Shown in pieces: positions 1 through 38,984 of a stretch of DNA of 64,000 bases. Source of the stretch: Boswellia sacra (taxonomy: Eukaryota; Streptophyta; Magnoliopsida; Sapindales; Burseraceae); assembly GCA_013180625.2 (NCBI GenBank), contig SNVD02009802.1:1-64000 (forward strand), in the 5' to 3' direction. Numbering within the stretch: position 1 is the first letter of the stretch; every line of letters starts with the position of its first letter. The translations under genes and the position numbers were made by a program. The notes beneath the pieces are model-generated. The model did not search any database. It had not been told where the DNA came from and saw nothing but the letters and a program-made list of their open reading frames with translations.

Positions 1-2
1 AG

Positions 3-402
3 CCAAGGTGAGATTGTCCTGTGAGCCGGACATTAATCTCGCAAAATACATGCCTGGTCTAGGAAAGACTACGCCAAGAGGCGAAGAGCAAAGAGGTTAC
101 AAGTATGTTATAATGTGCTAGATGGAATTGTAACCAGACTTGTCGTTCATTAGGTTTTGCGTCCAGGAATAGAGAAGATAAACTTTCATTTATTAAGAAT
201 GGTCTGAGTAATGAGTCGCTGGATAATATTTTATTAACTCTTGAGTCACATTCTTGTGGACTTGTTCAGCGTGAATTACTTAATTTATGGACAACAATTT
301 CGTGATGAATTGCAGTGTTATAGTCTAGGGAATCTGACTAAAAACGACCCTGTTTGCCAGTTTATAAGAAAACTGGATGGGAAGCAAATCCCCGACTCAT
401 AG
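3..402 (+). pseudogene. Frameshifted copy of the element's cysteine-containing ORF (3' two thirds)
   Basis: The sequence parallels residues about 76-209 of the intact ORF at 34503-35132 and ends at the same stop (TAG 400-402, after IPDS). Compared with that copy it has a 4-nt deletion near position 67, a 1-nt deletion near 111 and a 1-nt insertion near 291, so it cannot be read through. The cysteine cluster is still recognisable out of frame. The 5' end lies outside the window. Function unknown. Confidence 0.7.
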
Positions 403-633
403 AAGGCGTTTCAGCCGTTACTGGACGTAAAACCAGAGGAAGATGTGAGCCACAATCACAACTACTTGTATATTTGAATGTGTGTTGTTGTTGTCAAATT
501 TCTTTTTTCTTGTTTCGTTTGATCTGATTATCAATGTTGTTTTTGTATTATTGTTGTTTGTTGATTTTGTTTGTTTTAATTTCAAGTTTTCTTTTTGACA
601 AACAAACCATATGACTACCCTATGGCATAAGTA

Positions 634-639
634 CACGTG
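634..639 (+). promoter_or_regulatory. Single G-box (CACGTG) upstream of LOG in element A
   Basis: One CACGTG lies about 245 bp upstream of the LOG start. In element B the surrounding ~65-bp unit is present three times, each with the same G-box. A regulatory role is inferred only from the motif. Confidence 0.45.
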
Positions 640-881
640 GGAGATAAGTGTGGAGGTTTTGTCAAACCCCGTCAAAAGCATATCTCATTTTTTTCAAATC
701 TTGGGGCGATAAATCTGCATCGAGCAACTCCCACCGAAATTATGTCCCCATGTGTCAAATTTAAGAGTTATATATCCATGCTGCATATTTTGAAATGTCA
801 TTTCATAACCTGTATTGCACTTGAATCGCATAATACCTAACGTGCAACATTGTCTTACACAAGTTTAGAGCACTTGTAGAA

Positions 882-1532
882 ATGGAGAAAACACCAATTC
901 GGCGATTCCAAAATATATGCGTATTTTGTGGATCGCAATTTGGTAAAGATGGAGAGTTTACAACAGCAGCTCTTGATCTTGGTAGGACATTAGCTGCGAA
1001 GGGTATTCATTTGATTTACAGAGGAGGTAGTCTTGGGTTAATGGGGTGTGTGTCGACAGCTGCATCCCTAGGAGGGAGCAAAGTTCTCGGCATTATCCCT
1101 AAACTATTAGCTGTACGAGATATCGTAGGCAATACAATCGGGGAAGAGTTACAGGTCTCTAGCATGCATGAGCGTATTGCACATATGGTTGTTAAGTCCG
1201 ATGCATTTATAGCTTTGCCCGGTGGTTATGGTACATTAGAGGAGATATTTCAAATCACCTCTTGGGCACAGCTAAACATCCATCGGAAACCCATTGGTTT
1301 GTTAAATGTCAATAATTTTTTTGATGGTTTGTTGTCCTTTCTTGATCAAGCTGTAGAAAAAAACTTCATCTCACCGTCAGTGAGGCAAATCCTGGTTACA
1401 ACTTCAACTGCAGGGGAGTTAATTGATAAACTCCAAGAATTCGTCTATTTGCCTGATCCAACAACGGCTCCGATAGATTGGTTTGGAGAAGGCAATAAAA
1501 GGCGTAGACTGGATTTAACGCTCCATCTATAA
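882..1532 (+). CDS. LOG-family cytokinin riboside 5'-monophosphate phosphoribohydrolase, carried by a retrotransposon
   Basis: A 216-residue ORF of the lysine-decarboxylase-like LOG family. Plant LOG enzymes release free-base cytokinin from its nucleoside 5'-monophosphate in the cytosol and nucleus. Visible hallmarks are ICVFCGS near the N-terminus (residues 12-18), a GGSLGLMG segment (48-55), the MHER segment with the conserved Arg (R98) and PGGYGTLEE (113-121) with the conserved Glu. Length fits the family. Cellular LOG genes are normally split by several introns; this one has none, which points to capture of a spliced transcript. One oddity is at residue 47, where the usual GGGS loop reads RGGS; Gly to Arg in a nucleotide-binding loop may impair activity. 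The lysine usual after MHER is Ile. The ATG at 882 was chosen because it matches the start of the inverted copy. Expression is unknown. Confidence 0.85.
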   Translation: MEKTPIRRFQNICVFCGSQFGKDGEFTTAALDLGRTLAAKGIHLIYRGGSLGLMGCVSTAASLGGSKVLGIIPKLLAVRDIVGNTIGEELQVSSMHERIAHMVVKSDAFIALPGGYGTLEEIFQITSWAQLNIHRKPIGLLNVNNFFDGLLSFLDQAVEKNFISPSVRQILVTTSTAGELIDKLQEFVYLPDPTTAPIDWFGEGNKRRRLDLTLHL

Positions 1533-3515
1533 TCTCCATCTATTGGTTTGCTTCGCTTTTGTTTACTTTCTTTTTAGTGTGTTTATTTGAGATTTTTCGT
1601 GTTTATTTGAGATTTTTCATGTCATTTCTTTTGAGTTTTTTTCAGGTTATTTCTTTCGCCCCAGGTAATATTTTCTAATCATGGCTTTTAGAGTGGTGGC
1701 TTAAAAAGTTTAATTCCTCTTGAAACGCATTCTGGATCTCTTCAATCCATAATGGCTGAATAAGGAGGTTAACTTCTAAACTTTTTAGACCCATTCTAAC
1801 TGACTTGTTTTTGTTTGCTGGCTTGTTAGACTTTGTTATTTTATGAGCAAGTTTAGTTTTATGTAATTTAGAGTTGTTGTGTGTTTTTGTCTTTATCAGT
1901 TTTAATTCGAAAACAAAAAAAACATTGTGGAAAAACCTAAGAATGGCAGAATATGGGGTTTCCTTAACTCTTGAAACGCATTCTCTCTAAATAAATCTGT
2001 AGTTTGTTTATTTCATGTTGTTTGAAGTGTCTTGTTTCTTGTTTTGTTCTTTCATAATAAAGGTATATAGGCTGGAAACCTTAAGTCTGCGGGCTACTGG
2101 TCCTAAGGATTGTTGAAATATACAATCTTGACTCAGGTGTAACAACGCCACGTACCTCTTCTCTTGCATTTTATGGGCCAATGATAAGGCAATGATTGAA
2201 TTGAGAATAACTCTTGGAAAATGATAAATGATGCATAGATCTGTGTGCTTGAAATGTTAATTAGCTTTTGCTTTACCTTTGATTCCTTGCACAAAATTGA
2301 GCACCGAGCCATTATCACTGAGTTATTTGTTTACTTAGAGAAAGTTTATGTAATTTAAGTGTTTCTTCAGATTTCAATGAATTCTAGAACTTGTTTGATG
2401 GTCACTCGAGGCGAAATCCTAGACTGTGCAACATTAGGGAAATGATTTAGGCCATCTTTGGATCGTTTGAGCCTTAAGAGCCAACCTTGACTAAAATTGA
2501 TCCCTAGTTACCCCTTTGAGCCTCTGTAAACCTTTTTCTTTGTTAACTCACTAAAAGACTTCCTAATCTCAATTGAATTTGTTCCAAACAGTTTATCCCT
2601 TACCTATGAGCATGTAAATCATTCGCAATTACATTTTGAGCTATGTTCTGGTTTTGGGAAGTTAGAGGAAGTTGGATTGTGCCATGAGCAATGCAAGTGA
2701 GTTTTATTATGTTTGTAAAAAAAAAAAAAAGAGAAAAAAATCTGTACTTATCTTCCACGTACTTAAACATTGAGGACAATGTATTATTTAAGTGTGGGGG
2801 AGTGGAATTGCAGTTAAAAAAAGAAAAAGAAAAGAAAAAGAGTTCTATACCCTTGGGTGTTCTTAAAAAGAATGAAACAACAAAGTGTGGGGGTGTAGTT
2901 TCTTTTGTTTTCTACAAAAAAAAAAAAAGAAGAAGAAGAGAAGAGAAAAAAAAATAAGATTGAGTGTTCTAAATAAGTTTGGGGGAGTAACCTGGTGAAT
3001 TAAAATAAAGTTGTGTTTTAGGGGTGAGCTCTACATAATCTTGAATGATTTATGTGTTTGTGGGTGATTTGAGCCAAATTATTATCCTTGATCATACCTT
3101 CACCCAAGCCAAACGTTACAAGCTTAATAAAGTCCTACTTGATCCTTGGTGTTGTACATGTCTACATTAGTGGAGAGTGACTTGAAAAGCAGGCCTATGG
3201 AGTTCATTTATACATACATCTTCACTATTAAATATGATTCATTTTTAAGCATAAACTCATCCGGGTTACAAGTGATTAGGTGAGAATGGCTCTACACACA
3301 CACACTTGAGGAATTGAAGTGAAGCGAAACTAATCTTTGAGATAAAATTCTTGATCAAGTGCATTATTTTGAAGTTTTCCTTGGGTTATAATTAAGTACA
3401 ATCTTTGAGGCCTATTTGCAAGTTGAAGCATTTGTGTGTTTTAATTTTTCTTTGATTCTGTTTCGGTTTAGTTTTGTTTCGTATCATTTTAGTTGCTCGA
3501 GGACTAGCAAAGTCT
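1533..3515 (+). other. Noncoding 3' region of element A between LOG and LTR
   Basis: No credible ORF. The stretch is T- and A-rich with homopolymer A tracts (2718, 2917, 2949). It repeats a polypurine-tract-like motif (A)AGTGTGGGGG at 2791-2801 and 2883-2893, and AAGTTTGGGGG at 2975-2985, before the true tract at the LTR. The same stretch is present inverted at 31307-33240 in element B with scattered substitutions and indels. Confidence 0.7.
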
Positions 3516-3530
3516 AAGTGTGGGGGAATT
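3516..3530 (+). other. Polypurine tract of element A
   Basis: AAGTGTGGGGGAATT abuts the LTR start TGATAGG. This is the expected site of plus-strand DNA priming during reverse transcription. Element B has the same tract inverted at 31292-31306. Confidence 0.75.
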
Positions 3531-4943
3531 TGATAGGTGTCTATTTATGTATTACTTTTATATCAATTCGTCCATGTTTCTTTGCTATATTCCTTGGTAT
3601 TTTTATGTTTTTGTGTGGTTTTGATGTTTGTAGGAGTTTTGGAGCAACTTGCACAAAAATGGAGTAAAACCCTTCATTTTCACCTCTGCTAGTCAGTGAT
3701 CTTCTCGGATTTAATTGTATTGATATACAATGAACCCGATGACATGTTATATACCGTTGGAAAGCTCTCGAAGTCTATTTTCTGGAGAAATTTACGGTTT
3801 ATAAATCCATTCAGTGTACCAAAAGTTCTAATCAAAACAGTGTGAGATGTATAGAAATATAATTCCACAAGTCACTGTAGCATGTATAATACGGGGCACT
3901 GTAGCAATTCACTGTAGCAGAGTATTTAAACACATTTTAGGGTTTTATTTTCATAACTTGAAGAGGGGAGAACGTGGTGGAGGCTGCAGCTCTGGAATTC
4001 TTTCATCTCTTGGAGTTCTTGAAGGAGAAAGGAAGCTTGGAAAGAGGAAGAACTACAATCCAAAGAGAATTACATCAAATTTGCTAAGTTTTTCCCTTCC
4101 CTTTCATTTTCTGGAATGTCTCCATGTTGTATTGTATTTACCACGTTCTTAAACATGTGTAACTGAATCTGAATTGGTTGAGGGTGATTTCAAAGCCCCT
4201 GATATGGTTTTTGTAAGTTGATTGTGTAAGGAATTGTTATCCAATTCTCTAATTGAAGTTGCTTGTATTCTCCCATATTTAATGCTTATGATTGCTTGCT
4301 GATTGTATTTGAGTGGCCAACTGAATATAATCTGGTTGTGATTTATTGCTAGACTAGAAATCTTGATCCGTAATTGTCTTGAATTTCTAATCATTAGTAG
4401 CAAAATTGTGATCAGAGATTACAATTGGAGAATATAACCTAAGTTAAATAATCCGAGCTTGTGTGTTTATTGCTTAGATCAACCTATCTTTCTTATCATA
4501 ATGCATCCATTGAATTAAACTCAGAGAGCTTGTTCTAGGTTGTTTAATGGATAGAGATTAAATAAAGAGCTTGTTTTATTTAACAACAAAGTAAGGAAAG
4601 ATTGGGGTAATAGAGCTTGTTATTATCTACGGTTGATAACTTCAATGCTGTAATTAGATGACAATTCTACAATTAATTCGCAAATCCATATCTTGTGGTA
4701 GAGAAGGATCCCTTAACCAGCTTTCTCCCATTGATTTTTCATTCAAATTTACTTTCTGTTTTGTTATTCTTTACTTGCATTCTTATTTCATTTAGTAAAG
4801 CATTCAACAAAAATCCCCCCCTGTTTAGTTTATTGTTGCTGGAAATAACAAATTCAATTAGAATCAATCCTCGTGGGAACGATATCTTACTTATCACTTT
4901 ATTACTTGTGCGACTAGTATACTTGCTAGTTTCGAACGCATCA
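3531..4943 (+). repeat. 3' LTR of element A (1413 bp)
   Basis: The LTR starts TGATAGGTGTC and ends CGAACGCATCA, with TG/CA termini and a polypurine tract immediately upstream. The same ends bound the two LTRs of element B. By eye it is nearly identical to B's 5' LTR (37574-38984), including the stretch at 4149-4403, and clearly more diverged from B's 3' LTR (29868-31291), which differs by many substitutions and indels around 30690-30850. The base after it starts a short direct repeat of flanking sequence (TGAAACATGCCATTTACTAT at 4944 and again near 4990). Confidence 0.85.
3873..3930 (+). promoter_or_regulatory. LTR core promoter: three CACTGTAGCA repeats and a TATA-like box
   Basis: CACTGTAGCA occurs exactly at 3873, 3897 and 3910, followed by TATTTAAA at 3923-3930. 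The arrangement is present in inverted orientation in both LTRs of element B (near 30895-30950 and 38590-38645). It looks like a retroelement promoter with reiterated cis-elements; the function is inferred. Confidence 0.55.
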
Positions 4944-6225
4944 TGAAACATGCCATTTACTATGCTAGTACAAGAAGATGAGAATAGTGTGAAACATGCC
5001 ATTTACTATCTTAGCAAGAAGTTGCTACCATACGAGATAAAGTATAGTTACGTGGAGAAGACGTGCTTAGCCATGGTGTGGCTCTTGAAGAAATTGAGGT
5101 ATTAGTTTTAGTCTTATAAGATGAAGGTTGTTTCGAAGGTCAATGAAGTACCTTTATGAAGCACCATCATGGATGAGGAAGCTAGCAAGATGGCTGGTCC
5201 AGTTGTCAGAATTTGATATTGAGTATCTTACCAGGAAGGTGGTGAAAGAGAGAGTAGCTGCAGAATTTTTAGCCATGAATCCAATCGATGATGATGAACC
5301 ATGGGAGTTGGATTTCCCAGATGAACATCTAGGGGTGATCTCAATAGTGGGATGGAGGATATTCTTTGACGGAGCTGTCAATAGAAAAGATGCTAAAATA
5401 TAGGTTATTCTAGTATGAAGAAGTCATTCCTTTCGCTAAGAAGCTAGATTTTAGAGTTACTAACAACATGGCTGAGTATGAAGCATGTGCCTTTAGCCTA
5501 GAAATCATGATTGCGATGGGCATCGGTGAAATAGAAGTGTTAGAAGATTTGAAGTTAGTCATCTCTTGAGTCAATGAAGATTGGGATCAACGGGAAGAAC
5601 GATTAAAACTGTATCTGGAGCGTATTGGAACGTTGATTGGGAGGTTCAAGCAGTGCACTTTTATCCATCTTCTTAGAAATGAGAATTAGATGGCCAATGC
5701 CTTAGCCTCTTTGGCATCTGTTTAGGTGTGTACTTAGGAATTGTTGGTGAGACCAATTGTGATATCGCAAGCATTGGGTCTGTGCTATATGGAGCCTCAT
5801 ATAATGGAAGTTGAAGTGGATGAGAAGCTATGGTTCTATGATTTGAAGAAGTATTTAGAAGAGAGGATTCTACCAGATGAGGCCAGTTAGAAAGACAGGG
5901 TTATGCTACAAAGGTTGGCCCACCAATTTACTTGTCATCAAGAAGTGATGTACAAGAGAATGCCACAATGGATGCAATTGAGATGTGTTGATGATAAAAA
6001 AGCTAGAAGCCTTATGGAAGAAATCCATAGTGGTGTATGCGGGCCACACATGAATGGGCTAATTCTAGCAAGGAAGATAATGAGACAAGGCTTTTATTGG
6101 TTAACCTGAGCTGTCACCGATACTAATCAATGGAAATTTGATTCACCAACCACCTTTGGAGCTACAAGGAATGATAGCACTGTGGCCCTTTACTGTATGG
6201 AGCATTGACATTATAAGCGAATTAT
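4944..6225 (+). pseudogene. Tat-lineage gypsy pol fragment (RNase H, second RNase H, integrase start)
   Basis: Several short open stretches in different frames add up to the 3' half of pol. First comes the end of the ordinary RNase H (YLSKKLLPYE, then EFDIEYLTRK near 5205-5235). Next is a second, plant-type RNase H (FFDGAVNRK near 5363 and NNMAEYEACAFSLE near 5465), and then the integrase zinc-binding region (EEIHSGVCGPHMNG near 6020) and the first residues of the integrase core (WPFTVWSIDII near 6185). A second RNase H domain is the mark of the Tat lineage. In-frame stops and frameshifts are scattered throughout, so it is dead. The left end is the LTR of element A; the right end breaks off before the catalytic integrase residues. 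Confidence 0.75.
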
Positions 6226-6229
6226 AGCG

Positions 6230-7290: not shown

Positions 7291-7296
7291 GAAAAA

Positions 7297-7610: not shown

Positions 7611-7831
7611 TGAAGAGAAAAATACTTGAAGAATTAGAAGACTGCCACCAAACCTCTAACTCAGATCAATCCTGATGCAGCCATCCAATTCGATCAATGT
7701 CTCAGCTAGAATCAAGCGAACTACCATGAAATCAAGTGCTACCTGAGGAATGATGGTCACAAGATGTGGGTTGCCAAGATCGTCAGGTGAGACTAGTAGA
7801 AACTATTAAGGCAGAATTTAAAAAGGCGAAG

Positions 7832-8248: not shown

Positions 8249-8347
8249 ATTGAAAAGCATGAAGAGGTGTTAAGAAGCACAAAAGAAAACTCAAGAAAAG
8301 AGGAAGAAAGTGTTGAAAGGCGTGAAAAGAAGTGCAAAGGAGCAGTG

Positions 8348-19735: not shown

Positions 19736-19740
19736 AAGGC

Positions 19741-27405: not shown

Positions 27406-29866
27406 GGTATATGATTTGTGACCAAATTGCCCCTTTTTTAGTAAATTAGTGAGAGGATATGCTATGAGCCCATAGTTCTGCACAAACTTTCGATAGTAAC
27501 CTGTGAGACCCAAAAACCCATGTAATTCTGAAACATCATTAGGTCGAGGCCAATTGATCATTACCTCAATTTTTCTTTGATTCACCTTAACCCTTTGACT
27601 AGTCATGATATGGCCAAGATAATCTAATTTGTGTTTCCCAAAAACACACCTGGCAGCTTTAATAAAAAACTAATGTTGCCGCAATGTTTCAAAAGTCTTC
27701 ACAACATGTCTAAGATGCATGGTCCAATTGGGGCTATAAACCAATACGTTATCAAAGAATACTAATATGAATTTACAAAGATATGGGCGAAAAATAGAAT
27801 TCATAATAGCCAAAAAAGTAGAAAGAGCGTTACACAGGCCAAAAGGCATAACCAAATATTCATAATGACCATTATATGTACAAAAGGCCGTTTTGTGAGT
27901 GTCATAAGGATTTACCCTTACTTGATGGATCCTACCCTTAGATCTAATTTGGTAAAGTAGGTAGCCCCATGAAGCTCATCAAGCATATCATCAATGGTAG
28001 GAATGGGAAACCTATCTTTAATAGTCACGGCATTAAGTGCCCTATAATCAATGCAAAATCGTCAAGTCCCATCTTTCTTAACTAATGGTACAGGTAAAGA
28101 GAAGGGACTGGTGCTAGGTTTAATAAGCCTCAATTTCAGCATGTCTTGAACATGTTTCTCAATCTCAGCTTTTTGAAAATAGGCATACATGTAGGGTCTT
28201 ACATTGATAGGTTCAGTACCATCCTTGAGGGGAATACAATAATCCACTTCTCAGATCGAAGGTAGCTGCGTGGGTTCTTTAAGAATATCTGTGTATGCTT
28301 CTAGTACCTTCTGCATATCTGATTGCATTTTGGGTTGATCCACCTTGTCTATAGACTAAAAATAAATAGCAAATGTTGAACTTCCTTGTCTAGCTTCCTT
28401 TGAAACTGCCTCTAATGATGTTGAATGGATGGCTTGACTATTTGCCCCCTGCAATTTACGTTCTTGGTCCTCCCATTGGAACACCATGGTCATCTTTTGC
28501 CAATTACATATAACCAGCCCAAGTAGTTCAAGCCATTGTACTCCTAGCACAAGATCAAGTCCTATAAAAGGTATAGAGTAAAGGGTTAATGCGAAAGGAA
28601 TGCCTTGAAGGAGAACCTGCACATGCTCGAACCTTCCCTGACATTTAAGACTGCTACCATTAGCTCTACTCAAATGACAAAAGATTCTATTGGAATAACT
28701 GATAGCTGAAGTATCTCTGCCATTTTCATACTGTAGAAGTTGTATGTGGATCCACTATCAATAAGCACCCCCAATTCATGTTGGCCAATTTGACCTTTAA
28801 CTCGCATGGTGCGAGAGATGAACCACCCGGTAAAAGCATGTAGAGAAATTTATGGTTCGATCAATTCCTTATGTTGGTCCTCTGTCAAATTTTCATTTAC
28901 AACTTCTTTACATGCAATCTCATTGGTTTCATGTTGGCCCTCCAGTAGTAGTACTCGAGGTCTTTGGCACTTAAGACTTATAGTAAACTTGTCATTACAA
29001 TTAAAACAAAGTCCCTATGCTCATTTTCTCTGCATCTCATCCCAAGTTAGTTTCTTCACAGGTGAAGCTTTTGTTGGTGTTGGCAGAGCCAGCAAGGTGC
29101 GAGTACGTAGTGATGGCGTGAAAATCTCCTTTGCCGTTGTATTTGTTCATCCTTCATGGGAGCTAAGCTTATTGCCTCCTTCAAAGATTTAAGCTGAAAC
29201 ATGCGAATTGCTTCTAAAATTTATGAACGTAAACCACCCATGAATGATCCTACAAGTGCCTTTTGTGACCAACCGTGAACCCGATTACCAAGTCTCTTGA
29301 ACTCTTTTTGGTAATCTCGAAGGGATCCAACCTGTCGAACTTTGGAAAGAGCTTCGTCAAAATCTTCACATCTCTGTAGGTCCAAAACGAGCCCACAATT
29401 CCTCCTCAAATAATTCCCATGTCACCAAGCGGCCTTCCTCCCGAAAAGCTCGATGCAACCATTGCCACCATTGGTTAGCCTTTCCTTCAAGGTGGAAAGA
29501 TGCTAGAGATACCTTTTGGTTGTCAGTTGTGCCTTGATATTCAAAGAATTGAGCTACTCGGTTGAACCATTCAGTTGGATCATCGCCAAAGTATTTCAGA
29601 AATTCCAACTTTGCCATTTTGGAAGAGAAAACTGGTCTACCTCCATCATTCTCCTCACGGTGCGAACGAGAGGATCCTTCTAGCCCATTATTATTGTTGT
29701 TGCTGGAGGTCTCTCTAGTTGAGAGCAAAGCATTGGACAGCTTGCTGATGGTTTCCTCCAGTTGGTACAACTTATCATTCATGCTTAACTCCAGTGGTTT
29801 CATTCCACCTTGAACTCCACCGAGTTCATTCTCCAAAGTCTCAATCCTCTCTTTGTTGGATGCCAT
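27391..29866 (-). pseudogene. Chromovirus-type gypsy gag-protease-RT fragment
   Basis: On the minus strand gag starts at ATG 29866 (MASNKERIETLENELGG), directly against the LTR of element B. It shows a capsid segment (FFEYQGTTDNQKVSLASFHLEGKANQWW) near 29560 and DFDEALSKVRQVGSLRDYQ near 29350. Protease-linker sequence follows (GLDLVLGVQWLELLG near 28550). RT then shows FQKAEIEKHVQDMLK and VPLVKKDGT (28180-28065), MPFGLCNALSTF near 27850, FFDN in place of the catalytic FFDD near 27755, and the RT-RNase H connection ending at LLKKGQFG (27410). Stops between segments and the lost Asp show that it is inactive. RNase H, integrase and LTRs are missing. Confidence 0.75.
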
Positions 29867-29867
29867 G

Positions 29868-31291
29868 TGATGCGTTCGAAACTAGCAAGTATACTAGTCG
29901 CACAAGTAATAAAGTAGTAAGTAGATATCGTTCCCACGAGGATTGATTCTAATTGAATTTGTTATTCAAAAGCAACAACAGAATAAATGGGGGGGGGTTT
30001 TGTTGATGGATTAACTAAATGAAATATTAATGTAAATGCACAATAACACAACACAAAGTAAAATGGAGTGAAAAATCAATGAGAGACACTTGGTTAAGGG
30101 TTCTTTCTCTGCCACAAGATATGAATTTGTGAATTAACATAGAATTGTCATCCAATTACAGCATTGAAGTTATCAACCGTAGATAACAACAAGCTCTGTT
30201 ATCCCAATCTTTCCTTACTTTGTTGTTAAATAAAACAAGCTCTTTATTTAATCTCTATCCATTAAACAACCTAGAACAAGCTCTCTAAGTTTAATTCAAT
30301 GGAAGCATTACGATGAGAAAGATAGGTTGATCTAAGCAATAATCACACAAGTTCGGATTATTTAACCTAGGTTGTATTTTCCAATTGCAATCTCTGATCA
30401 CAATTTTGCTACTAATGATTGGAAATTCATGACAATTACGGATCAAGATTTCTAATCTAGCAATAGACAACAACAGATTATATTCAGTTGGCCATTCCAA
30501 ATACAATCAGTAAGCAATCATAAGCATTAGATATGGGAAAATACAAGCAACTTCAATTAGAGAATTGGATAACAATTTCTTACACAATCAACTCACAAAA
30601 TCCATATCAAGGGCTTTGAAATCACCCTCAACCAATTCAGATTTAGTTACACATATTCAATCAGAATAACAAATACAATACAGAGAAATTCCAGAATTGA
30701 AAAGGAAAGAAAGAACTTAGCAAATTCTTTGAAAATCTTCTTTGTAGATGAATCTTCTTGGAATTGTAGTTCCTCCTCTTTCAAAATCTTCTTTCTCCTT
30801 CAAGAACTCCAAGGGATGAGAGAAATCCAGAAATGCAGCCTCCTCCCACGTTTTCCCCTCTTCAAGTTATGAAAATAAAACCCTAAAATGTGTTTAAATA
30901 CTCTGCTACAGTGACTTGCTACAGTGCCCCGTATTATACATGCTACAGTGGCTTGTGGAATTATATTTCTATACATCTCACACTGTTTTGATTACAACTT
31001 TTGGTACACTGAATGGATTTATAAACCGTAAATTTCTCCAGAAAATAGACTTCGAGAGCTTTCCAACGGTATATAACATGTCATCGGGTTCATTGTATAT
31101 CAATACAATTAAATCCGAGAAGATCACTGACTAGCAGAGGTGAAAATGAAGGGTTTTACTCCATTTTTGTGCAAGTTGCTCCAAAACTCCTACAAACATC
31201 AAAACCACACAAAACATAAAAATACCAAGGAATATAGCAAAGAAACATGGACGAATTGATATAAAAGTAATACATAAATAGACACCTATCA
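29868..31291 (-). repeat. 3' LTR of element B (1424 bp)
   Basis: Same termini as the other LTRs of the family, preceded (minus strand) by the polypurine tract at 31292-31306. It differs from the 5' LTR by many substitutions and by indels in the segment 30690-30850, and by a longer G run (29990-29998). Confidence 0.85.
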
Positions 31292-33240
31292 AATTCCCCC
31301 ACACTTAGACTTTGCTAGTCCCCGAGCAACTAAAATGATACGAAACAAAACTAAACCGAAACAGAATCAAAGAAAAATTAAAACACACAAATGCTTCAAC
31401 TTGCAAATAGGCCTCAAAGATTGTACTTAATTATAACCCAAGGAAACTTCAAAATAATGCACTTGATCAAGAATTTTATCTCAAAGATTAGTTTCGCTTC
31501 ACTTCAATTCCTCAAATGTGTGTGTGTAGAGCCATTCTCACCTAATCACTTGTAACCCGGATGAGTTTATGCATAAAAATGAATCATATTTAATATTGAA
31601 GATGTGTGTATAAATGAACTCCATAGGCCTGCTTTTCAAGTCACTCTCCACTAATGTAGACATGCACAACACCAAGGATCAAGTAGGACTTTATTAAGCT
31701 TGTAACGTTTGGCTTGGGTGAAGGTATGATAAAGGATAATAATTAGGCTCAAATCACCCACAAACACATAAAATCATTCAATATTATGTGGAGCTCAAGC
31801 CCATGACATAAAAAAATTCATTCTTATTCATCAAATTACTCTCCCAAACTTATTCAGAACACTCGAACTCTTTTTTTTTCTTTTTTTTCTTTTTTCTTTT
31901 TTTTTCTGTAGAAAGCAAAAGAAACTACACCCCCACACTTTGTTGTTTCATTCTTTTTAAGAACGCCCAAGGGTATAGAACTCTTTTTTTTTCTTTTTTT
32001 TAACGGCAATTCCACTCCCCCACACTTAAACAATACATTGTCCTCAATGTTTAAGTACGTGGAAGATAAGTACAGATTTTTTTCTCTTTTTTTTTTTTTT
32101 ACAAACATAATAAAACTCACTTGCATTGCTCATGGCATAATCCAACCTCCTCTAACTTCCCAAAACCAGAACATAGCTCAAAATGTAATTGCGAATGATT
32201 TACATGCTCATAGGTAAGGGATAAACTGTTTGGAACAAATTCAATTAAGGTTAGGAAATCTTTTAGTGAGTTAACAAAGAAAAAGGTTTACAGAGGCTCA
32301 AAGGGGTAACTAGGGATCAATTTTAAGTCAAGGTTGGCTCTTAAGGCTCAAACGGTCCAAAGATGGCCTAAATCATTTCCCTAATGTTGCACAGTCTAGG
32401 ATTTCGCCTCGAGTGACCATCAAACAAGTTCTAGAATTCATTGAAATCTGGAGAAACACTTAAATTACATAAACTTTCTCTAAGTAAACAAATAACTCAG
32501 TGATAATGGCTCGGTGCTCAATTTTGTGCAAGGAATCAAAGGTAAAGCAAAAACTAATTAACATTTCAAGCACAAAGATCCATGCATCATTTATCATTTT
32601 CCAAGAGTTATTCTTAATTCAATCATTATCTTATCATCGACCCACAAAATGCAAGAAAAGAGGTACGTGGCGTTGTTACACCTGAGTCAAGATTGTATAT
32701 TTCAACAATCCTTAGGACCAGTAGCCCGCAGACTTAAGGTTTCCAGCCTATATACCTTTATTATGAAAGAAACACTTCAAACAACATGAAATAAACAAAC
32801 TACAGATTTATTTCGAGAGAATGCGTTTCAAGGGTAAAGAAACCCCATATTCTGCCATTCTCAGGTTTTTCCACAATTGTTTTTTTTTTCAAATCAAAAC
32901 TGATAAAGATAAAAACACATAACAACTCTAAATTACGCAAAACTAAACTCACTCATAAAATAACAAAGTTCAACAAGTCAGCAAACAAAAACAAGTTAGT
33001 TAGAATGGGTCTAAAAGTTTAGAAGTTAGCCTCCTTATTCAGCCATTATGGATTGAAGAGATCCAGAATGCGTTTCAAGAGAACTTGAACTTTTTAAGCC
33101 ACCACTCTAAAAACCGAGATTAGAAAATATTACCTGGGACGAAAGAAATAACCTGAAAAAGCTCAAAAGAAACGACATGAAAAATCTCAAATAAACACAC
33201 TAAAAAGAAAGCAAACAAAAACGAAGCAAACCAGCAAATA
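31292..33240 (-). other. Noncoding 3' region of element B
   Basis: Inverted counterpart of 1533-3530. On the plus strand the reiterated purine motif appears as CCCCCACACTT near 31296, 31930 and 32020. T-rich homopolymer tracts vary in length from those in A. Lysine-rich readings here are low-complexity artefacts. Confidence 0.7.
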
Positions 33241-33244
33241 GAGA

Positions 33245-33894
33245 TTACAGATGGAGGGTTAAATCCAGTTGACGCCTTTTGTTGCCTTCTCCAAACCAAT
33301 TTATCCGAGCCATTGTTGGATCAGGTGAATAGACGAATTCTTGTAGTTTGTCAATTAACTCTCCTGCAGTTGAAGCTGTAACCAGCATTTGCCTTGCTGA
33401 CGGTGAGATGAAATTTTTTTCTACAGCTTGATCAAGAAAGGACAACAAACCATCAAAAAAATTATTAACATTTAACAAACCAATGGGTTTCCGATGGATG
33501 TTTAGCTGTGCCCAAGAGGTGATTTGAAATATCTCCTCTAATGTACCATAAACACGGGCAAAGCTATAAATGCATCGGACTTAACAACCATATGTGCAAT
33601 ACGCTCATGCATGCTAGAGACCTGTAACTCTTCCCCGATTGTGTTGCCTACGATATCTCGTACAGCTAATGGTTTAGGGATAATGCCGAGAACTTTGCTC
33701 CCTCCTAGGGATGCAGCTGTTGACACACACCCCATTAACCCAAGACTACCCCCTCCATAAATCAAATTAATACCCCTCGCAGCTAATGTCCTACCAAGAT
33801 CAAGAGCTGCTGTGGTAAACTCTCCATCTTTACCAAATTGCGATCCGCAAAATACGCATATATTGCGGAATCGCCGAATTGGTGTTTTCTCCAT
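33245..33894 (-). pseudogene. LOG-family gene in element B, frameshifted in the catalytic motif
   Basis: On the minus strand it starts at ATG 33894 and matches the element A ORF closely. Here the nucleotide-binding loop is the family-typical GGGSLGLMG, unlike the RGGS of copy A. At about 33555 the codons for PGGYGT have lost one base and carry a substitution, so the frame shifts right after ALP and stops five codons later. The rest of the gene is open in the original frame from about 33540 down to the stop at 33245. The encoded enzyme would lack the catalytic PGGYGTLEE motif and everything after it. Confidence 0.8.
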
Positions 33895-34089
33895 TTCTAC
33901 AAGTGCTCTAATCTTGTGTAAGACACGTTAGATATTATGCTTTTCAATTGCAAGACAGGTTATGGAATGACATATGAAAATATGCAGAATGTATATATAC
34001 ACCCATAAAACTCTCAAATTTTGACACATGGGGACATACTTTCGGTGGGGGTTGCTCGATGCAGATTTATCGCCCCAAGATTTGAAAAA

Positions 34090-34285
34090 ATGAGATATGC
34101 TTTCGGCGAGGTTTGACAAAACCTACACACTTGTCTCCCACGTGAAGCATGGAAAATGGACATACACTTTCGGCGGGGTTGACAAAACCCCACACTTGTC
34201 TCCCACGTGAAGCATAAAAATGGAGATACACTTTCGGTGGAGGTTGACAAAACCTCCACACTTGTCTCCCACGTGTACTTATGCC
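34090..34285 (-). repeat. Three tandem ~65-bp repeats, each with a G-box
   Basis: Units share TTGACAAAACC, a short CA-rich stretch, ACTTGTCTCCCACGTGAAGC and ACACTTTCGGYGG (plus-strand reading). CACGTG falls at 34139, 34204 and 34270, i.e. 65-66 bp apart. Element A has one unit (about 634-690). The array is 195-400 bp upstream of the LOG start, where a promoter could lie. The spurious ORFs across it are by-products of the repeat. Confidence 0.75.
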
Positions 34286-34502
34286 ATAGGGTAGTCATAT
34301 GGTTTGTCAAAAAGAAAACTTGAAATTAAAACAAACAAAATCAACAAACAACAACAACACAAAAACAACATTGATAATCAGATCAAACGAAACAAGAAAA
34401 AAGAAATTCGACAACAACAACACACATTCAAATATACAAGTAGTTGTGATTGTGGCTCACATCTTCCTCTGGTTTTACGTCCAGTAACGGCTGAAACGCC
34501 TT

Positions 34503-35132
34503 CTATGAGTCGGGGATTTGCTTCCCATCCAGTTTTCTTATAAACTGGCAAACAGGGTCGTTTTTAGTCAGATTCCCTAGACTATAACACTGCAATTCAT
34601 CACGAAATTGTGTCCATAGATTAAGCAATTCACGCTGAACAAGTCCACAAGAATGTGACTCGAGAGTTAACAAAACATTATCCAGCGACTCATTACTCAA
34701 ACCATTCTTAATAAATGAAAGTTTATCTTCTCTATTCCTGGACGCAAAACCTAATGAACGACAAGTCTGGTTACAATTCCATCTAGCACATTTATAACAT
34801 ACTTGTAACCTTTTCGCTCTTCGCCTCTTGGCGTAGTAGCTCTTTCCTAGACCAGGCATGTATTTTGCGAGATTAATGTCCGGCTCACCGGACAATCTCA
34901 CCTTGGCTTCGATAAGCCATCGGATATCAGCAGGCACATTTAGGAGCATCAATGCCCAAAGTCTAGTCATCCGTACTTTATAAATTTTAAACACAGCATT
35001 TTGAGGAAGTGAAGGAAAATATTTACGAAGGTTCGACAGAAAGATATCGGCATCCATTGAAGAGAAGAAAAGGAGAGATATTACCGATAATGCGATTGAG
35101 TCTTGTTCTTCTCCAAGATATGCACGTTTCAA
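34503..35132 (-). CDS. Retrotransposon-borne ORF of unknown function with a Cys cluster
   Basis: An open frame of 209 codons between the end of pol and LOG. The likelier start is the internal Met at residue 26 (MDADIFLSNL, about 35057), since the preceding residues look like leader. It has a conserved-looking core (NVPADIRWLIEAKVRL, residues 65-80), a basic stretch KRRRAKR (102-108) followed by C-x2-C-x4-C-x3-C (C112, C115, C120, C124), which could bind zinc, and a C-terminal NLTKNDPVCQFIRKLDG (187-203). I do not recognise the family. Position matches where Athila elements have an env-like ORF, but there is no signal peptide or membrane segment. The copy in element A is frameshifted. The composition and lack of introns fit retroelement coding DNA. 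Confidence 0.6.
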   Translation of the reverse strand: MKRAYLGEEQDSIALSVISLLFFSSMDADIFLSNLRKYFPSLPQNAVFKIYKVRMTRLWALMLLNVPADIRWLIEAKVRLSGEPDINLAKYMPGLGKSYYAKRRRAKRLQVCYKCARWNCNQTCRSLGFASRNREDKLSFIKNGLSNESLDNVLLTLESHSCGLVQRELLNLWTQFRDELQCYSLGNLTKNDPVCQFIRKLDGKQIPDS

Positions 35133-35465
35133 ACCTTCGGGCGAATGGTTTCAACTCCCCTTCGAATGTTTCCCCAAGCTGTTGCACAAATGAATTCGAA
35201 GTACGAAATAATCAAATTGAACAAAGGAAGGAAAAGAAAAGAGTAGAGACGAAACTAAAGACACATAAAAGAGATAACAACACAATAGCAAACAAAAGTC
35301 AAAAACAAGTAAAAAAATATAAAAACAAATAAGACAGATGGCAAAGAGAGATAAAACCTGATCAATTTGATGGCCTACGAAAGGAATCTCCTTGAGACAC
35401 AAAAATCGATCATTATTACCTCATTTTATTTTTCTTTTCTTCTTTTTTTTTATTTTTCAAAAACA

Positions 35466-35481
35466 TTGGGTTGCCTCCCAA
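35466..35481 (-). other. Conserved post-pol hairpin motif of Athila-like elements
   Basis: On the minus strand TTGGGAGGCAACCCAA, a 5-bp stem with a 6-base loop, follows the pol remnant by about 20 bp. GGGAGGCAACCCA after pol is known to me from Athila/Calypso-type elements and supports the lineage call. Confidence 0.6.
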
Positions 35482-35502
35482 TAAGCGCTTGGTTTTACGT
35501 CC

Positions 35503-35751
35503 TCAGCCCGACGTTGGTTCCATCATGGGAGGATCCAATCTCCGCTGTGCTTCTCTAATGGGCTTGGATCCTTCTTTGAACAAGAAATGGTGCATGCATA
35601 TGGTTGGGCCTTGGATGTTAACAATCGTCCACTTAATAGCTGTTTTGTGACCTCTATAAGTAGATCGGACGAGTTTCTCTTCTTGTATTCGTGCAAGCCC
35701 ATTTTCTATTGTAACTAGCAAAGTATCATTTGCCACAAAACCAGGCCTCAA
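35503..35751 (-). pseudogene. N-terminal edge of Athila RT, remainder deleted
   Basis: The minus-strand frame contains ICMHHFLFKEGSKPIREAQR and RLDPPMME, the conserved entry into the RT domain of Athila/Tat pol. It then runs into the post-pol sequence with a stop after TSG. RT catalytic, RNase H and integrase domains are absent, so about 3 kb or more of pol was deleted between RLDPPMME and the post-pol motif. Confidence 0.6.
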
Positions 35752-36052
35752 ATGATCTGGAAGACTTAAGCTCCAAGGGGTTTGGCTTTCATCACAGAAG
35801 GAAGAAGTTTCTCATTAGATAAAGCAAATTGAATGTACGAAACATCATACCTATTTGTGTATTGCTATATCTCATCTAAGCTGCCACAGCTTTCCTCCTT
35901 TTCTTTGGACATTGTATCAACTTCTTGGTTCTTTGAAACTTTCTTCCTATGAGCTCATTATAGCATCATTCCATCCATCCTTGCGAGTTAACTCAAAACA
36001 TTGTTGTGGCAAATAATCAATAACGTCAACTGCAAAAACAGAATGTAAGTCA

Positions 36053-36806
36053 TTAGAGTACCTCATTCCTCAAAATATTAAAACATATCACCTTGCCATC
36101 AAACTCTATGGTCAAAGTGCCATAATGAACATCAATCTTGATTCTAGCAGTTTTCGAGAATGGCCTCCCTAAAAGAATCGGTGTTGGATTAGGAGATGTC
36201 TCATCCTCTATTTTAAGGACATAGAAGTCTGCTGGAAAAACCAATTGATTCACCTGCACAAGCACATCTTCCACAACTCTTTTGGATATGCATTAAAATG
36301 ATCAGCAAACTGAATGGTAATACCAGTTTTCGCAAAAGGTCCAAGATTTAAAGAAGCATAAATAGAATATGGCATGATGTTAATAGATGCTCTAAATCTA
36401 ACATAACTCTTTCAAACTTGGTTTTACCAATGGTGCATGGAATGGTGAACGTACCTGGATTATTGCATTTCGGAGGAATTTTCCTTTGCAATACAGCTAA
36501 AACATCTTCCCCCACACTTACTTTCTCATTTCCCTTTAACTTTCTTTTGCTGGTGCATAACTCCTTGAGACATTTTGTATAATGAGGTACTTGCTCGATA
36601 GCATCCAGAAGTGGTATATTTACCTCGATTTTGTGAGAAGTTTCCAGGATTTCTTGTTCTTGTTCCTCCTTCGATTTTGCAAATCTACTAGGAAAAAGTG
36701 GAGGAGAAACATATGAAGGAATGGGAGTTATAGGATTTACCTGAGAATTCAGTGTTTTGTTCATGGTGGAAGTGGTGTCATCTCCTTCATCAGTTTGTGA
36801 TCGCAC
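36053..36806 (-). pseudogene. Gag-protease linker and aspartic protease remnant of element B
   Basis: Two minus-strand segments. 36806-36348 encodes PPLFPSRFAKSKEEQEQEI, NIPLLDAIEQVPHYTKCLK, VLQRKIPPKCNNPGTFTIPC and the protease entry VMLDL, where the active-site DLGAS has been broken by a small deletion. 36274-36053 encodes the C-terminal protease part (VLVQVNQLVFPADFYVL, then PTPILLGRPFSKTA). The active site and the frame between the segments are both lost. Confidence 0.7.
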
Positions 36807-36874
36807 AAGAATTCTCTCTGGAATTGATCATCGTTTGACAAGATAATTCTTCTGAGCCTTGGCCCTCGATTTGC

Positions 36875-37496
36875 TCATGCTAGTAGCCAGTTGTCCATTT
36901 GATTTACCAGGTTTTGGATACTTGCCCCAGTTTCCTGCTGGAATTGCATTGTGTTAGTGGCAAGTGCATTAACAATATCCTGGAGAGACATACCTGAGTT
37001 TTGTGAAGCTGGTTGCGGTGCTGGATGTGGCATTGGTGGTGGTTGCATTTGAAAAGGTTGCTGCACTCTAGGTTGATTGAAACCTTGTGGCCGATTTGGT
37101 ATCACATTTGGAGTGATTGGTTGATGATTCCAGTAACTGAAATTATGGTGATCTTCCCATCCAGCATTGTAAGTGTTAGAGAAAGGATCATACCATTGCC
37201 TTGTTTGTCCTGGAAATCCACCCATGGCATTGGCTTGTTCCATATATTCTTCTTGTAAAGTTGGATACATGTCGATTGGATGCTCCATCGTAGAATATAC
37301 CCCATTCATAAGATTTTTGCATATCTCCTACAGCCATGTTTTCCACAAGAGAGGTTAGCTCAGAAAGTTGTTGTTCAATGTTCGGAGTGCTTACCTCATT
37401 TACTCTCCATGGTACTTGTGGCTCAAATCCGCTACTGAATTGATAGAAGTTTACTGCCATGTTGTCTAAACACAAACAATCAGAAAGGAAAAACAA
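36875..37496 (-). pseudogene. Gag remnant of element B (N-terminal capsid part missing)
   Basis: Minus-strand frames cover only the C-terminal half of an Athila-type gag: a coiled segment (IEQQLSELTSLVENMAV), a former zinc knuckle (HPIDMYPTLQEE, with the usual Cys positions changed), a GGFPGQ/YDPFSNTYNAGW segment, a Pro/Gln-rich tract (QMQPPPMPHPAPQP) and SGMSLQDIVNALATNTMQFQ. A frameshift separates the first from the second piece. It begins almost directly after the primer site, so capsid is deleted. Confidence 0.65.
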
Positions 37497-37549
37497 AGAA
37501 AATATGAATCAACAATGAAAACAAAATAACAAATTGATTAGAAAATCAA

Positions 37550-37567
37550 TCCCCGGCAACGGCGCCA
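37550..37567 (-). other. Primer-binding site complementary to tRNA-Asp
   Basis: The plus strand reads TCCCCGGCAACGGCGCCA, the 3' end of plant tRNA-Asp(GTC) including the terminal CCA equivalent. It is separated from the LTR by six bases (37568-37573). This is the standard primer site of Athila-type elements and fixes the minus-strand orientation. Confidence 0.85.
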
Positions 37568-37573
37568 AAAACT

Positions 37574-38984
37574 TGATGCGTTCGAAACTAGCAAGTATAC
37601 TAGTCGCACAAGTAATAAAGTGATAAGTAAGATATCGTTCCCACGAGGATTGATTCTAATTGAATTTGTTATTTCCAGCAACAATAAACTAAACAGGGGG
37701 GATTTTTGTTGAATGCTTTACTAAATGAAATAAGAATGCAAGTAAAGAATAACAAAACAGAAAGTAAATTTGAATGAAAAATCAATGGGAGAAAGCTGGT
37801 TAAGGGATCCTTCTCTACCACAAGATATGGATTTGCGAATTAATTGTAGAATTGTCATCTAATTACAGCATTGAAGTTATCAACCGTAGATAATAACAAG
37901 CTCTATTACCCAATCTTTCCTTACTTTGTTGTTAAATAAAACAAGCTCTTTATTTAATCTCTATCCATTAAACAACCTAGAACAAGCTCTCTGAGTTTAA
38001 TTCAATGGATGCATTATGATAAGAAAGATAGGTTGATCTAAGCAATAAACACACAAGCTCGGATTATTTAACTTAGGTTATATTCTCCAATTGTAATCTC
38101 TGATCACAATTTTGCTACTAATGATTAGAAATTCAAGACAATTACGGATCAAGATTTCTAGTCTAGCAATAAATCACAACCAGATTATATTCAGTTGGCC
38201 ACTCAAATACAATCAGCAAGCAATCATAAGCATTAAATATGGGAGAATACAAGCAACTTCAATTAGAGAATTGGATAACAATTCCTTACACAATCAACTT
38301 ACAAAAACCATATCAGGGGCTTTGAAATCACCCTCAACCAATTCAGATTCAGTTACACATGTTTAAGAACGTGGTAAATACAATACAACATGGAGACATT
38401 CCAGAAAATGAAAGGGAAGGGAAAAACTTAGCAAATTTGATGTAATTCTCTTTGGATTGTAGTTCTTCCTCTTTCCAAGCTTCCTTTCTCCTTCAAGAAC
38501 TCCAAGAGATGAAAGAATTCCAGAGCTGCAAGCCTCCACCACGTTCTCCCCTCTTCAAGTTATGAAAATAAAACCCTAAAATGTGTTTAAATACTCTGCT
38601 ACAGTGACTTGCTACAGTGCCCCGTATTATACATGCTACAGTGCTTGTGGAATTATATTTCTATACATCTCACACTGTTTTGATTACAACTTTTGGTACA
38701 CTGAATGGATTTATAAACCGTAAATTTCTCCAGAAAATAGACTTCGAGAGCTTTCCAACGGTATATAACATGTCATCGGGTTCATTGTATATCAATACAA
38801 TTAAATCCGAGAAGATCACTGACTAGCAGAGGTGAAAATGAAGGGTTTTACTCCATTTTTGTGCAAGTTGCTCCAAAACTCCTACAAACATCAAAACCAC
38901 ACAAAAACATAAAAATACCAAGGAATATAGCAAAGAAACATGGACGAATTGATATAAAAGTAATACATAAATAGACACCTATCA
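37574..38984 (-). repeat. 5' LTR of element B (1411 bp)
   Basis: Bounded by TGATGCG (left, 37574) and CTATCA (right, 38984) on the plus strand. By eye nearly identical to the 3' LTR of element A: an 84-codon stretch (38112-38366 here, 4149-4403 there) translates identically. It is clearly different from B's own 3' LTR. Confidence 0.85.

What the first reader, a model, noticed from the sequence alone, without database searches (positions are those of the whole stretch)
1..38984. Athila-type retrotransposon family carrying a processed cytokinin-activation (LOG) gene
Two element copies (A at 1-4943, B at 29868-38984) hold the same intronless LOG-family ORF between the end of pol and the 3' LTR, where Athila elements normally carry an env-like ORF. 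The gene has no introns although cellular plant LOG genes usually have several, so it was probably captured as RNA. Both copies also share the ORF upstream of LOG and all intervening DNA, so LOG is a stable part of a family that multiplied after capture. A mobile element that carries a gene making active hormone could affect its host or its own activity. I do not know whether this family has been described.
Basis: partly seen in the sequence, partly recalled or inferred. Interest (0 to 1): 0.88.

Follow-up and report, generated by a model that had tools for sequence, protein, structure and literature searches.

The report
Jumping gene carrying hormone, virus-like genes
A very abundant plant retrotransposon carries a gene for a cytokinin-activating type of enzyme next to a gene resembling a plant-virus silencing suppressor; both genes show signs of selection and are kept in copies that have lost their own copying machinery.

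Summary
Both elements lie at the stated coordinates. The 882-1532 ORF is a LOG-family enzyme by profile and predicted fold. The ORF upstream of LOG (34503-35132) matches Pfam Viral_NABP/Carla_C4, the carlavirus nucleic-acid-binding silencing suppressor. In the window, copy A's NABP and copy B's LOG are broken. The host genome (639 Mb) holds 4,967 matches to a LOG active-site 30-mer; NABP lies upstream in 29 of 30 LOG loci examined. In both genes singleton changes look neutral, while variants shared by three or more copies are depleted of amino-acid changes. Five of six elements fetched show the same deletion of RT, RNase H and integrase; the four with both LTRs moved recently (0.6-4.4% divergence, 5-bp target duplications). 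Of six integrase loci chosen, five have NABP downstream. Related LOGs in rosids and Rehmannia form one clade with an EAR-like LxLxL C-terminus (97 of 120; cellular 0 of 120) and two replaced prenyl-pocket residues (108 of 121). LOG-like domains in a few plant Gypsy elements were already reported; the NABP partner, tail, pocket change and pol-less retention I found in no paper that I searched. The biochemistry is inferred.

The parts
1..402 (+). Copy A, remnant of the NABP-like gene, cut by the window start and broken into frames
   Evidence: tblastn pieces of P0121/P0194 at 2-64, 114-290, 238-399
882..1532 (+). Copy A LOG-family ORF, 216 aa, intronless and open; Arg at residue 47; ends NKRRRLDLTLHL
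3516..3530 (+). Copy A polypurine tract AAGTGTGGGGGAATT beside the 3' LTR
   Evidence: sequence
3531..4943 (+). Copy A 3' LTR (TGATAG...GCATCA)
29868..31291 (-). Copy B 3' LTR
31292..31306 (-). Copy B polypurine tract
   Evidence: sequence
33245..33580 (-). Copy B LOG, second open piece (frame-broken gene)
33538..33927 (-). Copy B LOG, first open piece
34086..34275 (-). 65-bp tandem repeat, 2.9 copies, in the NABP-LOG spacer of copy B
34503..35132 (-). Copy B NABP-like ORF (the start Met used by most relatives lies at about 35051): Viral_NABP / Carla_C4, basic stretch and a four-cysteine cluster
35503..37508 (-). Copy B remnant of the 5' polyprotein in pieces, ending at a deletion junction near 35503 after which RT, RNase H and integrase are missing; protease region read by homology to L031
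   Evidence: the homologous 688-aa ORF of L031; shared junction
37551..37567 (-). Copy B primer binding site TGGCGCCGTTGCCGGGG, recalled as complementary to tRNA-Asp
   Evidence: sequence
37574..38984 (-). Copy B 5' LTR

Best explanation
The window holds two copies of a high-copy Ty3/gypsy (probably Athila) retrotransposon family with a conserved two-gene accessory module, NABP then LOG, between the pol position and the 3' LTR. Shown: the module is present genome-wide and in other plants; variants shared between copies of both genes bear the mark of purifying selection; five of six elements read have lost RT, RNase H and integrase at one shared junction, while of six integrase loci chosen in the same genome five carry NABP and four the start of LOG. 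Inferred: the pol-less copies borrow reverse transcriptase and integrase from such relatives. NABP, like its carlavirus relatives, is a basic zinc-finger protein that binds nucleic acid and weakens RNA silencing or alters host transcription. LOG is an active phosphoribohydrolase (catalytic Arg and Glu kept) that raises active cytokinin, or a related base, in the expressing cell, favouring division and persistence of meristem or germ-line lineages; its C-terminal basic-plus-LxLxL tail docks the host TOPLESS corepressor. Together they make the cell a better place for the element to multiply. My confidence is about 0.9 in the anatomy and selection, 0.5 in NABP as silencing suppressor, 0.4 in LOG as hormone enzyme, 0.3 in the TOPLESS link.
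For: Copy number: 150 of 150 scored LOG hits and 150 of 150 scored NABP hits; 4,967 LOG 30-mer and 5,734 LTR-start 30-mer matches, controls 0. Linkage: NABP upstream in 29 of 30 LOG loci, LOG downstream in 19 of 20 NABP-picked loci. Selection: LOG in NABP-picked loci, singletons N/S 53/25 = 2.12 against a neutral 2.16, variants in 3 or more copies 9/25 = 0.36, stops 7 among singletons and 0 among shared, Fisher P 5.7e-5 (singletons against two or more); NABP in LOG-picked loci 74/36 against 11/23, P 3.3e-4, stops 5 against 1. Recent movement without pol: the four LTR pairs differ 0.57, 2.0, 4.0, 4.4% with matching 5-bp duplications; same junction, 39 of 40 bases, in 5 of 5. Enzyme: LOG fold, 1.0 A from 2a33; catalytic Arg in 113 of 121 and Glu in 115 of 121. 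NABP: of 25 rows scanned (window ORF included) 21 match Viral_NABP and 22 Carla_C4; of 37 Foldseek viral hits 21 are named silencing suppressor, nucleic-acid- or RNA-binding protein of flexivirus-type viruses and 2 more are other small proteins of such viruses (my count). Carlavirus CRPs as silencing suppressors, one also as a transcription factor causing hyperplasia: PMC12172455, passages. Tail: 97 of 120 against 0 of 120 cellular; one relative, P0050, ends IDLNLTP, the other EAR type (definition PMC9956375, passages).
Against: No biochemical or expression evidence. The LOG prenyl-pocket Lys and Glu (Lys100, Glu125 of CgLOG, PMC4979012, passages) are both replaced in 108 of 121 element-type rows, the window's included, so cytokinin may not be the substrate. 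No single Foldseek viral hit is significant (best E 0.035) and the NABP model is weak (pLDDT 63.7, pTM 0.35). Most copies picked without regard to LOG have it broken: 3 of 20 are open. NABP too is often broken: 12 of 30 LOG-picked loci hold it full-length, gapless and open. With all 48 LOG rows pooled, variants in exactly two copies are hardly depleted (15/10). Element-level selection for a protein that benefits the whole cell is hard to explain in pol-less copies unless it acts in cis or between cell lineages. Cytokinin-response motifs (AGATHY) are not enriched in the LTR (4 found, 7.7 expected).
Confidence: 0.5

Rival explanations
1. LOG and NABP are passengers: captured sequence copied along without function.
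For: Many copies are decayed: of 20 NABP-picked loci 3 have an open LOG. In the window each copy has one of the two genes broken.
Against: Shared variants are depleted of amino-acid changes while singletons are near neutrality, in both genes. Listed relatives of LOG and NABP stay near full length at roughly 50-75% identity across plants. A against B LOG: 14 nonsynonymous and 17 synonymous where 21.2 of 31 nonsynonymous are expected, P 0.006.
Confidence: 0.05
2. The LOG protein is kept for something other than cytokinin: an altered substrate (plain AMP, another N6-modified nucleotide, nucleotide-pool or RNA turnover) or a non-enzymatic scaffold role, with TOPLESS docking as the main function.
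For: Lys99 and Glu124 (window numbers) are K-E in 122 of 122 cellular rows but K-E in 12, K-Q in 1 and neither in 108 of 121 element-type rows; the next residue, Leu in 122 of 122 cellular rows, is Phe in 121 of 121. The tail is element-specific within the sets compared.
Against: The pocket change maps to about one event (K 2 changes, E 1 change), so it is not repeated evidence. Catalytic Arg and Glu, Met95 (105/121) and Trp128 (119/121) are kept.
Confidence: 0.35
3. The NABP similarity runs the other way or is convergent: carlaviruses took the gene from a retrotransposon, or both took it from a host gene.
Against: The window ORF matches above Pfam's curated cut-offs and most relatives match at E 0.01; apart from the LOG domains of a fused gene model no other Pfam family matched the 25 rows.
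Confidence: 0.35
4. The region is conserved for an RNA or DNA signal, not for protein.
For: Not excluded in principle for parts of the element; the Rfam scan at gathering cut-offs found nothing.
Against: What is conserved is amino acids, not bases: N/S about 0.3-0.4 among variants in three or more copies against 2.2 expected.
Confidence: 0.03

Closest known systems
Athila-like elements with LOGL4-like extra ORF (Steinbauerova et al. 2011; recalled abstract, not held) and LTR-element consensuses with YgdH/LOG domain in Citrus and Populus (PMC9289625, passages)
   Same: Plant Ty3/gypsy LTR element with a LOG-type ORF; Citrus and Populus proteins also appear among the relatives here (P0238, P0053)
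   Different: The passages I saw do not mention an NABP partner, the LxLxL tail, the pocket change, a pol-less family or selection on LOG
Plant LOG cytokinin riboside 5'-monophosphate phosphoribohydrolases (LOG3 2a33, LOG8 1ydh)
   Same: Fold, PGGxGTxxE motif, catalytic Arg/Glu
   Different: Separate clade; Lys100/Glu125 pair mostly lost; Leu to Phe beside it; basic plus LxLxL tail
Carlavirus/allexivirus NABP or cysteine-rich protein
   Same: Pfam Viral_NABP and Carla_C4, basic stretch plus four-cysteine cluster
   Different: About 182-aa element protein; sits in a DNA-integrated retroelement; activity untested
Non-autonomous LTR elements that borrow polymerase in trans (for example BARE-2, LARD; recalled)
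   Same: Pol missing, recent transposition with LTRs, primer site and target duplication
   Different: Keeps two accessory genes
Orchid Gypsy elements with an m6A demethylase ORF (PMC9289625, passages)
   Same: Gypsy element fixed an extra functional gene of a kind also known from flexiviruses
   Different: Different genes; there the enzyme activity was shown

Membership tests
Athila lineage (Ty3/gypsy) | RT/integrase tree places it with Athila; no archaeal RNase H | not tested
   RT and integrase are absent from the window copies; integrase relatives were found but no tree was built
Athila lineage (Ty3/gypsy) | Extra ORF region between integrase and 3' LTR | tested here: met
   Of 6 integrase loci chosen from 150, 5 have NABP downstream and 4 the LOG start within 1.3 kb
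Athila lineage (Ty3/gypsy) | Athila ORF-1 domain PF03078 | tested here: not met
   No match in the Pfam scans of the window pieces and of L031; not a required feature, found in 16% of Athila elements (PMC6317226, passages)
LTR retrotransposon | TG...CA LTRs, primer site, polypurine tract, 5-bp target duplication | tested here: met
   duplications match in the 4 of 6 fetched elements with both LTRs found; window B lacks one
LOG phosphoribohydrolase | Fold and PGGxGTxxE with catalytic Arg and Glu | tested here: met
LOG phosphoribohydrolase | Canonical prenyl-pocket Lys and Glu | tested here: not met
   Both lost in 108 of 121 element-type rows, the window LOG among them
LOG phosphoribohydrolase | Releases active cytokinin from nucleotides | not testable with these tools
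   Needs an enzyme assay
Viral NABP / carlavirus CRP | Profile match above curated cut-off | tested here: met
   Window ORF 41.4 bits against 23 and 23.8 against 20.9; 21 and 22 of 25 rows at E 0.01
Viral NABP / carlavirus CRP | Same fold | tested here: inconclusive
   37 hits at E 10 or better, none at 0.001; 21 of 37 named as flexivirus-type NABP, RNA-binding or silencing-suppressor proteins; weak model
Viral NABP / carlavirus CRP | Silencing suppression or nucleic-acid binding | not testable with these tools
   No assay
EAR-motif protein | LxLxL or DLNx(x)P consensus | tested here: met
   97 of 120 plus one DLNLTP, window LOG included in form (LDLTLHL); tail disordered in the model, pLDDT under 50 at 202-216
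EAR-motif protein | Binds TOPLESS and represses | not testable with these tools
   No assay

The most novel reading that the evidence does not exclude
A retrotransposon lineage assembled a virus-like counter-defence and hormone module: a carlavirus-type silencing suppressor plus a LOG enzyme re-tooled with a new substrate pocket and a TOPLESS-recruiting tail. The module matters more to the element than its own polymerase, since pol-less copies that kept it multiplied to high number. It would be an endogenous element that steers host cell fate as gall-forming pathogens do, from within the genome.
Probability: 0.3. Interest if true: 0.92.

Novelty: new variant of a known kind. Interest (0 to 1): 0.76.

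Why it matters
Extra genes in plant retrotransposons are mostly of unknown use. Here two of them have nameable activities, a shared position, thousands of copies of at least the LOG in one genome and a signature of selection, so the question what accessory genes do for a plant retrotransposon becomes directly testable. If LOG is active, a sizeable repeat family of a plant genome can in principle make hormone; if the tail binds TOPLESS, the element touches the host's main corepressor. It also matters for annotation: LOG-like proteins of Reevesia, Diplodiscus, Pterospermum, Xanthoceras, Populus and Rehmannia fall in this clade and are annotated there as LOG enzymes or hypothetical proteins.

Tried and rejected
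LTR activation by cytokinin: type-B response motif AGATHY (motif recalled) is not enriched in the LTRs (4 against 7.7 expected in A, 8 against 7.7 in B's 3' LTR). Relatives outside plants: none in viral contigs for LOG or NABP, none of P0121 in plasmids. Rfam scan at gathering cut-offs and tRNA scan of the window: nothing.

Simple pN/pS among copies: 0.119 for 26 open LOG-picked copies but 0.487 for the 5 gapless of 20 NABP-picked copies. The first is deflated because the tool ranks copies by protein similarity, so I do not rest on it and used the frequency comparison. In that test LOG in LOG-picked loci has singletons at 38/30, below neutrality, as that bias predicts; on all 48 LOG rows together variants in exactly two copies are hardly depleted (15/10), only those in three or more are (15/46). 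The match of Lys99 and Glu124 is perfect by count but amounts to about one event on the tree. The tail needs 10 changes on that tree, so it was lost or gained several times.

Donor clade: not resolved. The cellular rows are the best 120 of 7,998 scored relatives of LOG3 plus LOG3 and LOG8; LOG5/LOG7-type rows were not sought, so the statement that cellular LOGs lack the tail covers LOG3 relatives only. A search of the host genome for its own cellular LOG did not complete; nor were counts of the deletion junction and of NABP. Host species not determined. Not every sampled locus was checked for the pol deletion.
Full report
What is there. LTRs of about 1.41 kb with TGATAG...GCATCA ends are at 3531-4943 (A, 3' LTR), 37574-38984 (B, 5' LTR) and 29868-31291 (B, 3' LTR). 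Next to B's 5' LTR is TGGCGCCGTTGCCGGGG (37551-37567), which I recall as complementary to tRNA-Asp, one of the primers used by non-chromovirus Gypsy elements (PMC6317226, passages); next to the 3' LTRs is AAGTGTGGGGGAATT. Copy A carries an open LOG ORF (882-1532) and a broken NABP; copy B an open NABP (34503-35132) and a LOG broken into two frames. A's LTR is 99.6% identical to B's 5' LTR while B's own LTRs are 90.7% alike, and B has no target duplication, so B is probably a recombinant.

The missed gene. The ORF upstream of LOG matches Pfam Viral_NABP (E 2.1e-10) and Carla_C4 (E 4.4e-5), both above the curated cut-offs. Of 25 rows scanned (the window ORF and 24 relatives that I chose from the 120 listed), 21 and 22 match at E 0.01. 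A 60-row alignment shows a near-invariant basic stretch and four cysteines. The AlphaFold model is weak (pLDDT 63.7, pTM 0.35). Foldseek against viral models gives 37 hits, none significant alone (best E 0.035); by my reading 21 of the 37 are named as silencing-suppressor, nucleic-acid- or RNA-binding proteins of viruses that I recall as flexiviruses, and 2 more are other small proteins of such viruses. Viral CRPs of this kind suppress silencing, and that of chrysanthemum virus B also acts as a transcription factor inducing hyperplasia (PMC12172455, passages; PMC10219291, passages).

Copy number and linkage in the host. The window is part of an unnamed 638.6-Mb assembly; its genes are those of a plant (ALMT, bHLH-MYC_N, Stress-antifung). 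LOG: 14,732 first-look candidates, 150 scored, 150 matching at 92-100% identity, 136 of them without an internal stop by my count of the table. NABP: 14,205 candidates, 150 scored, 150 matching. The candidate numbers are no copy counts. A 30-base LOG active-site pattern with up to 3 mismatches has 4,967 places, its control 0; the first 30 bases of the LTR have 5,734, control 0. NABP lies upstream in 29 of 30 LOG loci (only a divergent match in L018 and a short one in L023; none in L016), and LOG downstream in 19 of 20 NABP-picked loci.

Pol was lost, the module kept. Of 6 elements whose 5' part I fetched, 5 show a 5' LTR followed after about 2.58 kb by NABP; the sixth (L037, the locus of L016) showed neither. 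The intervening frame is open over 688 aa in 2 of 5 (L031, L033). In L031 it has only a weak aspartyl-protease match (E 9e-4, below the cut-off) and no gag, RT, RNase H or integrase match at E 0.1. The same junction (39 of 40 bases) is in 5 of 5, so one deletion most likely founded this subfamily. Four of the six have both LTRs in the stretches fetched; they differ by 0.57, 2.0, 4.0 and 4.4% and all four have a matching 5-bp duplication (AAAAC, AAGAT, GCTAG by script; GAGAG read by eye, since the strict pattern missed that 5' LTR). At a recalled rate of 1.3e-8 per site and year that is roughly 0.2-1.7 million years. Integrase relatives exist in the genome (5,323 candidates, 150 scored, 150 matching at 74-77% identity to a Rhamnella protein; that this piece is an integrase tail is my reading, no Pfam match). 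Of 6 that I chose from the 150 for long open frames, 5 have NABP downstream and 4 the LOG start within 1.3 kb; one (L075) has neither. That LOG start is 54-65% identical to the window LOG, and the NABP frame of L073 holds stops. So a distinct integrase-bearing subfamily carries the module too and could supply enzymes in trans (inference).

Selection. Picking copies by protein similarity biases dN/dS (0.119 for 26 LOG-picked; 0.487 for the 5 gapless of 20 NABP-picked). I therefore compared variant classes in loci picked by the other gene. LOG in 19 NABP-picked rows: singletons 53 nonsynonymous, 25 synonymous, 7 stops; variants in two copies 6, 8, 0; in three or more 9, 25, 0. NABP in 27 LOG-picked rows: singletons 74, 36, 5; two 7, 10, 1; three or more 4, 13, 0. 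The neutral N/S is 2.16 and 2.21. Fisher tests of singletons against variants in two or more copies: P 5.7e-5 and 3.3e-4. LOG in 29 LOG-picked rows gives 38/30 against 16/47, P 3.4e-4. Singletons look like neutral decay after insertion; shared variants, which passed through replication, were purged. A against B LOG agrees (dN/dS 0.24; 14 of 31 nonsynonymous where 21.2 are expected, P 0.006). I did not verify that every sampled copy is a pol-less one, so selection after the loss of pol is likely but not fully shown.

Other plants. The best 120 of 6,543 LOG hits include proteins of Xanthoceras, Melia, Reevesia, Diplodiscus, Pterospermum, Populus and Rehmannia, several of them with many members whose locus tags lie on different chromosomes; the 120 listed of 147 NABP relatives add Rhamnella, Citrus and Gossypium. 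Gene models fuse NABP with LOG in Rhamnella (P0195) and Citrus (P0238) and, by my reading, Gossypium (P0235), and an integrase tail with NABP in Rhamnella (P0194). Contig lengths of at least 1,500 bases shared between the two lists number 4, against a mean of 0.59 and a maximum of 3 in 120 shifted controls (76 and 109 lengths, without chromosome-size records). With shorter lengths included 9 coincide against a mean of 3.0 and a maximum of 8. Element-type LOGs are one clade apart from cellular LOG1/3/4-type and LOG8 (37 of 37 rows in a 57-row tree, support 100/100; 121 of 121 in a quick 140-row tree, SH-aLRT 100). That all 120 sit in elements is not shown; copy number, clade and fused models argue for it.

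What is different about this LOG. The model (pLDDT 82.8) lies 1.0 A from Arabidopsis LOG3 over 178 columns. The catalytic Arg is kept in 113 of 121 and Glu in 115 of 121. Two residues that line the prenyl pocket, Lys100 and Glu125 of CgLOG (PMC4979012, passages), are K and E in 122 of 122 cellular rows but in only 12 of 121 element-type rows; 108 have neither; the neighbouring Leu became Phe in 121 of 121. After the conserved Trp the cellular tail is replaced by a short basic stretch and LxLxL at the very end: 97 of 120, 93 with a double basic pair just before it, cellular 0 of 120. The set was ranked by similarity to a query that has the tail, which favours it slightly. In those 97 the positions between the leucines vary, and one relative ends in IDLNLTP. 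These are the two EAR consensus forms, most often C-terminal (PMC9956375, passages). The tail is disordered in the model. In the 26 open host copies the three tail leucines never vary. The 23 of 120 without the tail include Xanthoceras proteins that stop just before it.

Novelty. LOG-type domains in a few Gypsy elements are known (PMC9289625, passages; Steinbauerova 2011, recalled). The review of extra ORFs in plant LTR elements holds neither 'LOG' nor 'cytokinin' (PMC7264820, term search). For the NABP partner I searched the library with Athila plus carlavirus (1 paper), retrotransposon with CRP terms (4 papers) and Pfam names with retrotransposon (1 paper); I saw titles and abstract starts only and none suggests such a report. 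YgdH plus retrotransposon gives only PMC9289625; Athila plus LOGL4 none. Most subscription journals are not in that library. I rate it a new variant of a known kind: an extra-ORF Gypsy element whose extra genes form a selected, virus-like module.

Noticed in passing
59712-63460 (+): Exons of a bHLH gene; 60058-60375 matches bHLH-MYC_N (E 1.4e-14); the sequence reads like GL3/EGL3/TT8-type (recalled)
   Followed up: partly
45353-47474 (-): ALMT (aluminium-activated malate transporter) gene in pieces; 46908-47474 and 46520-46903 match ALMT
   Followed up: partly
44053-44508 (-): Stress-antifung (DUF26) ORF, CRK-like fragment
   Followed up: no
40218-40547 (+): PC-Esterase domain stretch
   Followed up: no
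4947-5403 (+): RNase H-like stretch of another retroelement directly beyond copy A's 3' LTR; A appears inserted in it
   Followed up: partly
29366-29881 (-): ORF with a Retrotrans_gag match just under the cut-off directly beyond copy B's 3' LTR
   Followed up: no
24168-24805 (-): RT and RNase H fragments of another retroelement; more of that kind by eye up to 28754
   Followed up: no
15226-15447 and 20648-21048: Two arrays of a related 88-89-bp tandem repeat, and repeated blocks between 7.9 and 17.5 kb
   Followed up: no
41388-41877: 200-bp tandem repeat, 2.5 copies
   Followed up: no
3531-4943 and 37574-38984: 99.6% identity between LTRs of two inverted elements while B's own pair is 90.7% alike: conversion, inversion or recombination
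   Followed up: partly
L075 (host contig C3677): An integrase-like locus without NABP or LOG within 1.3 kb downstream
   Followed up: no
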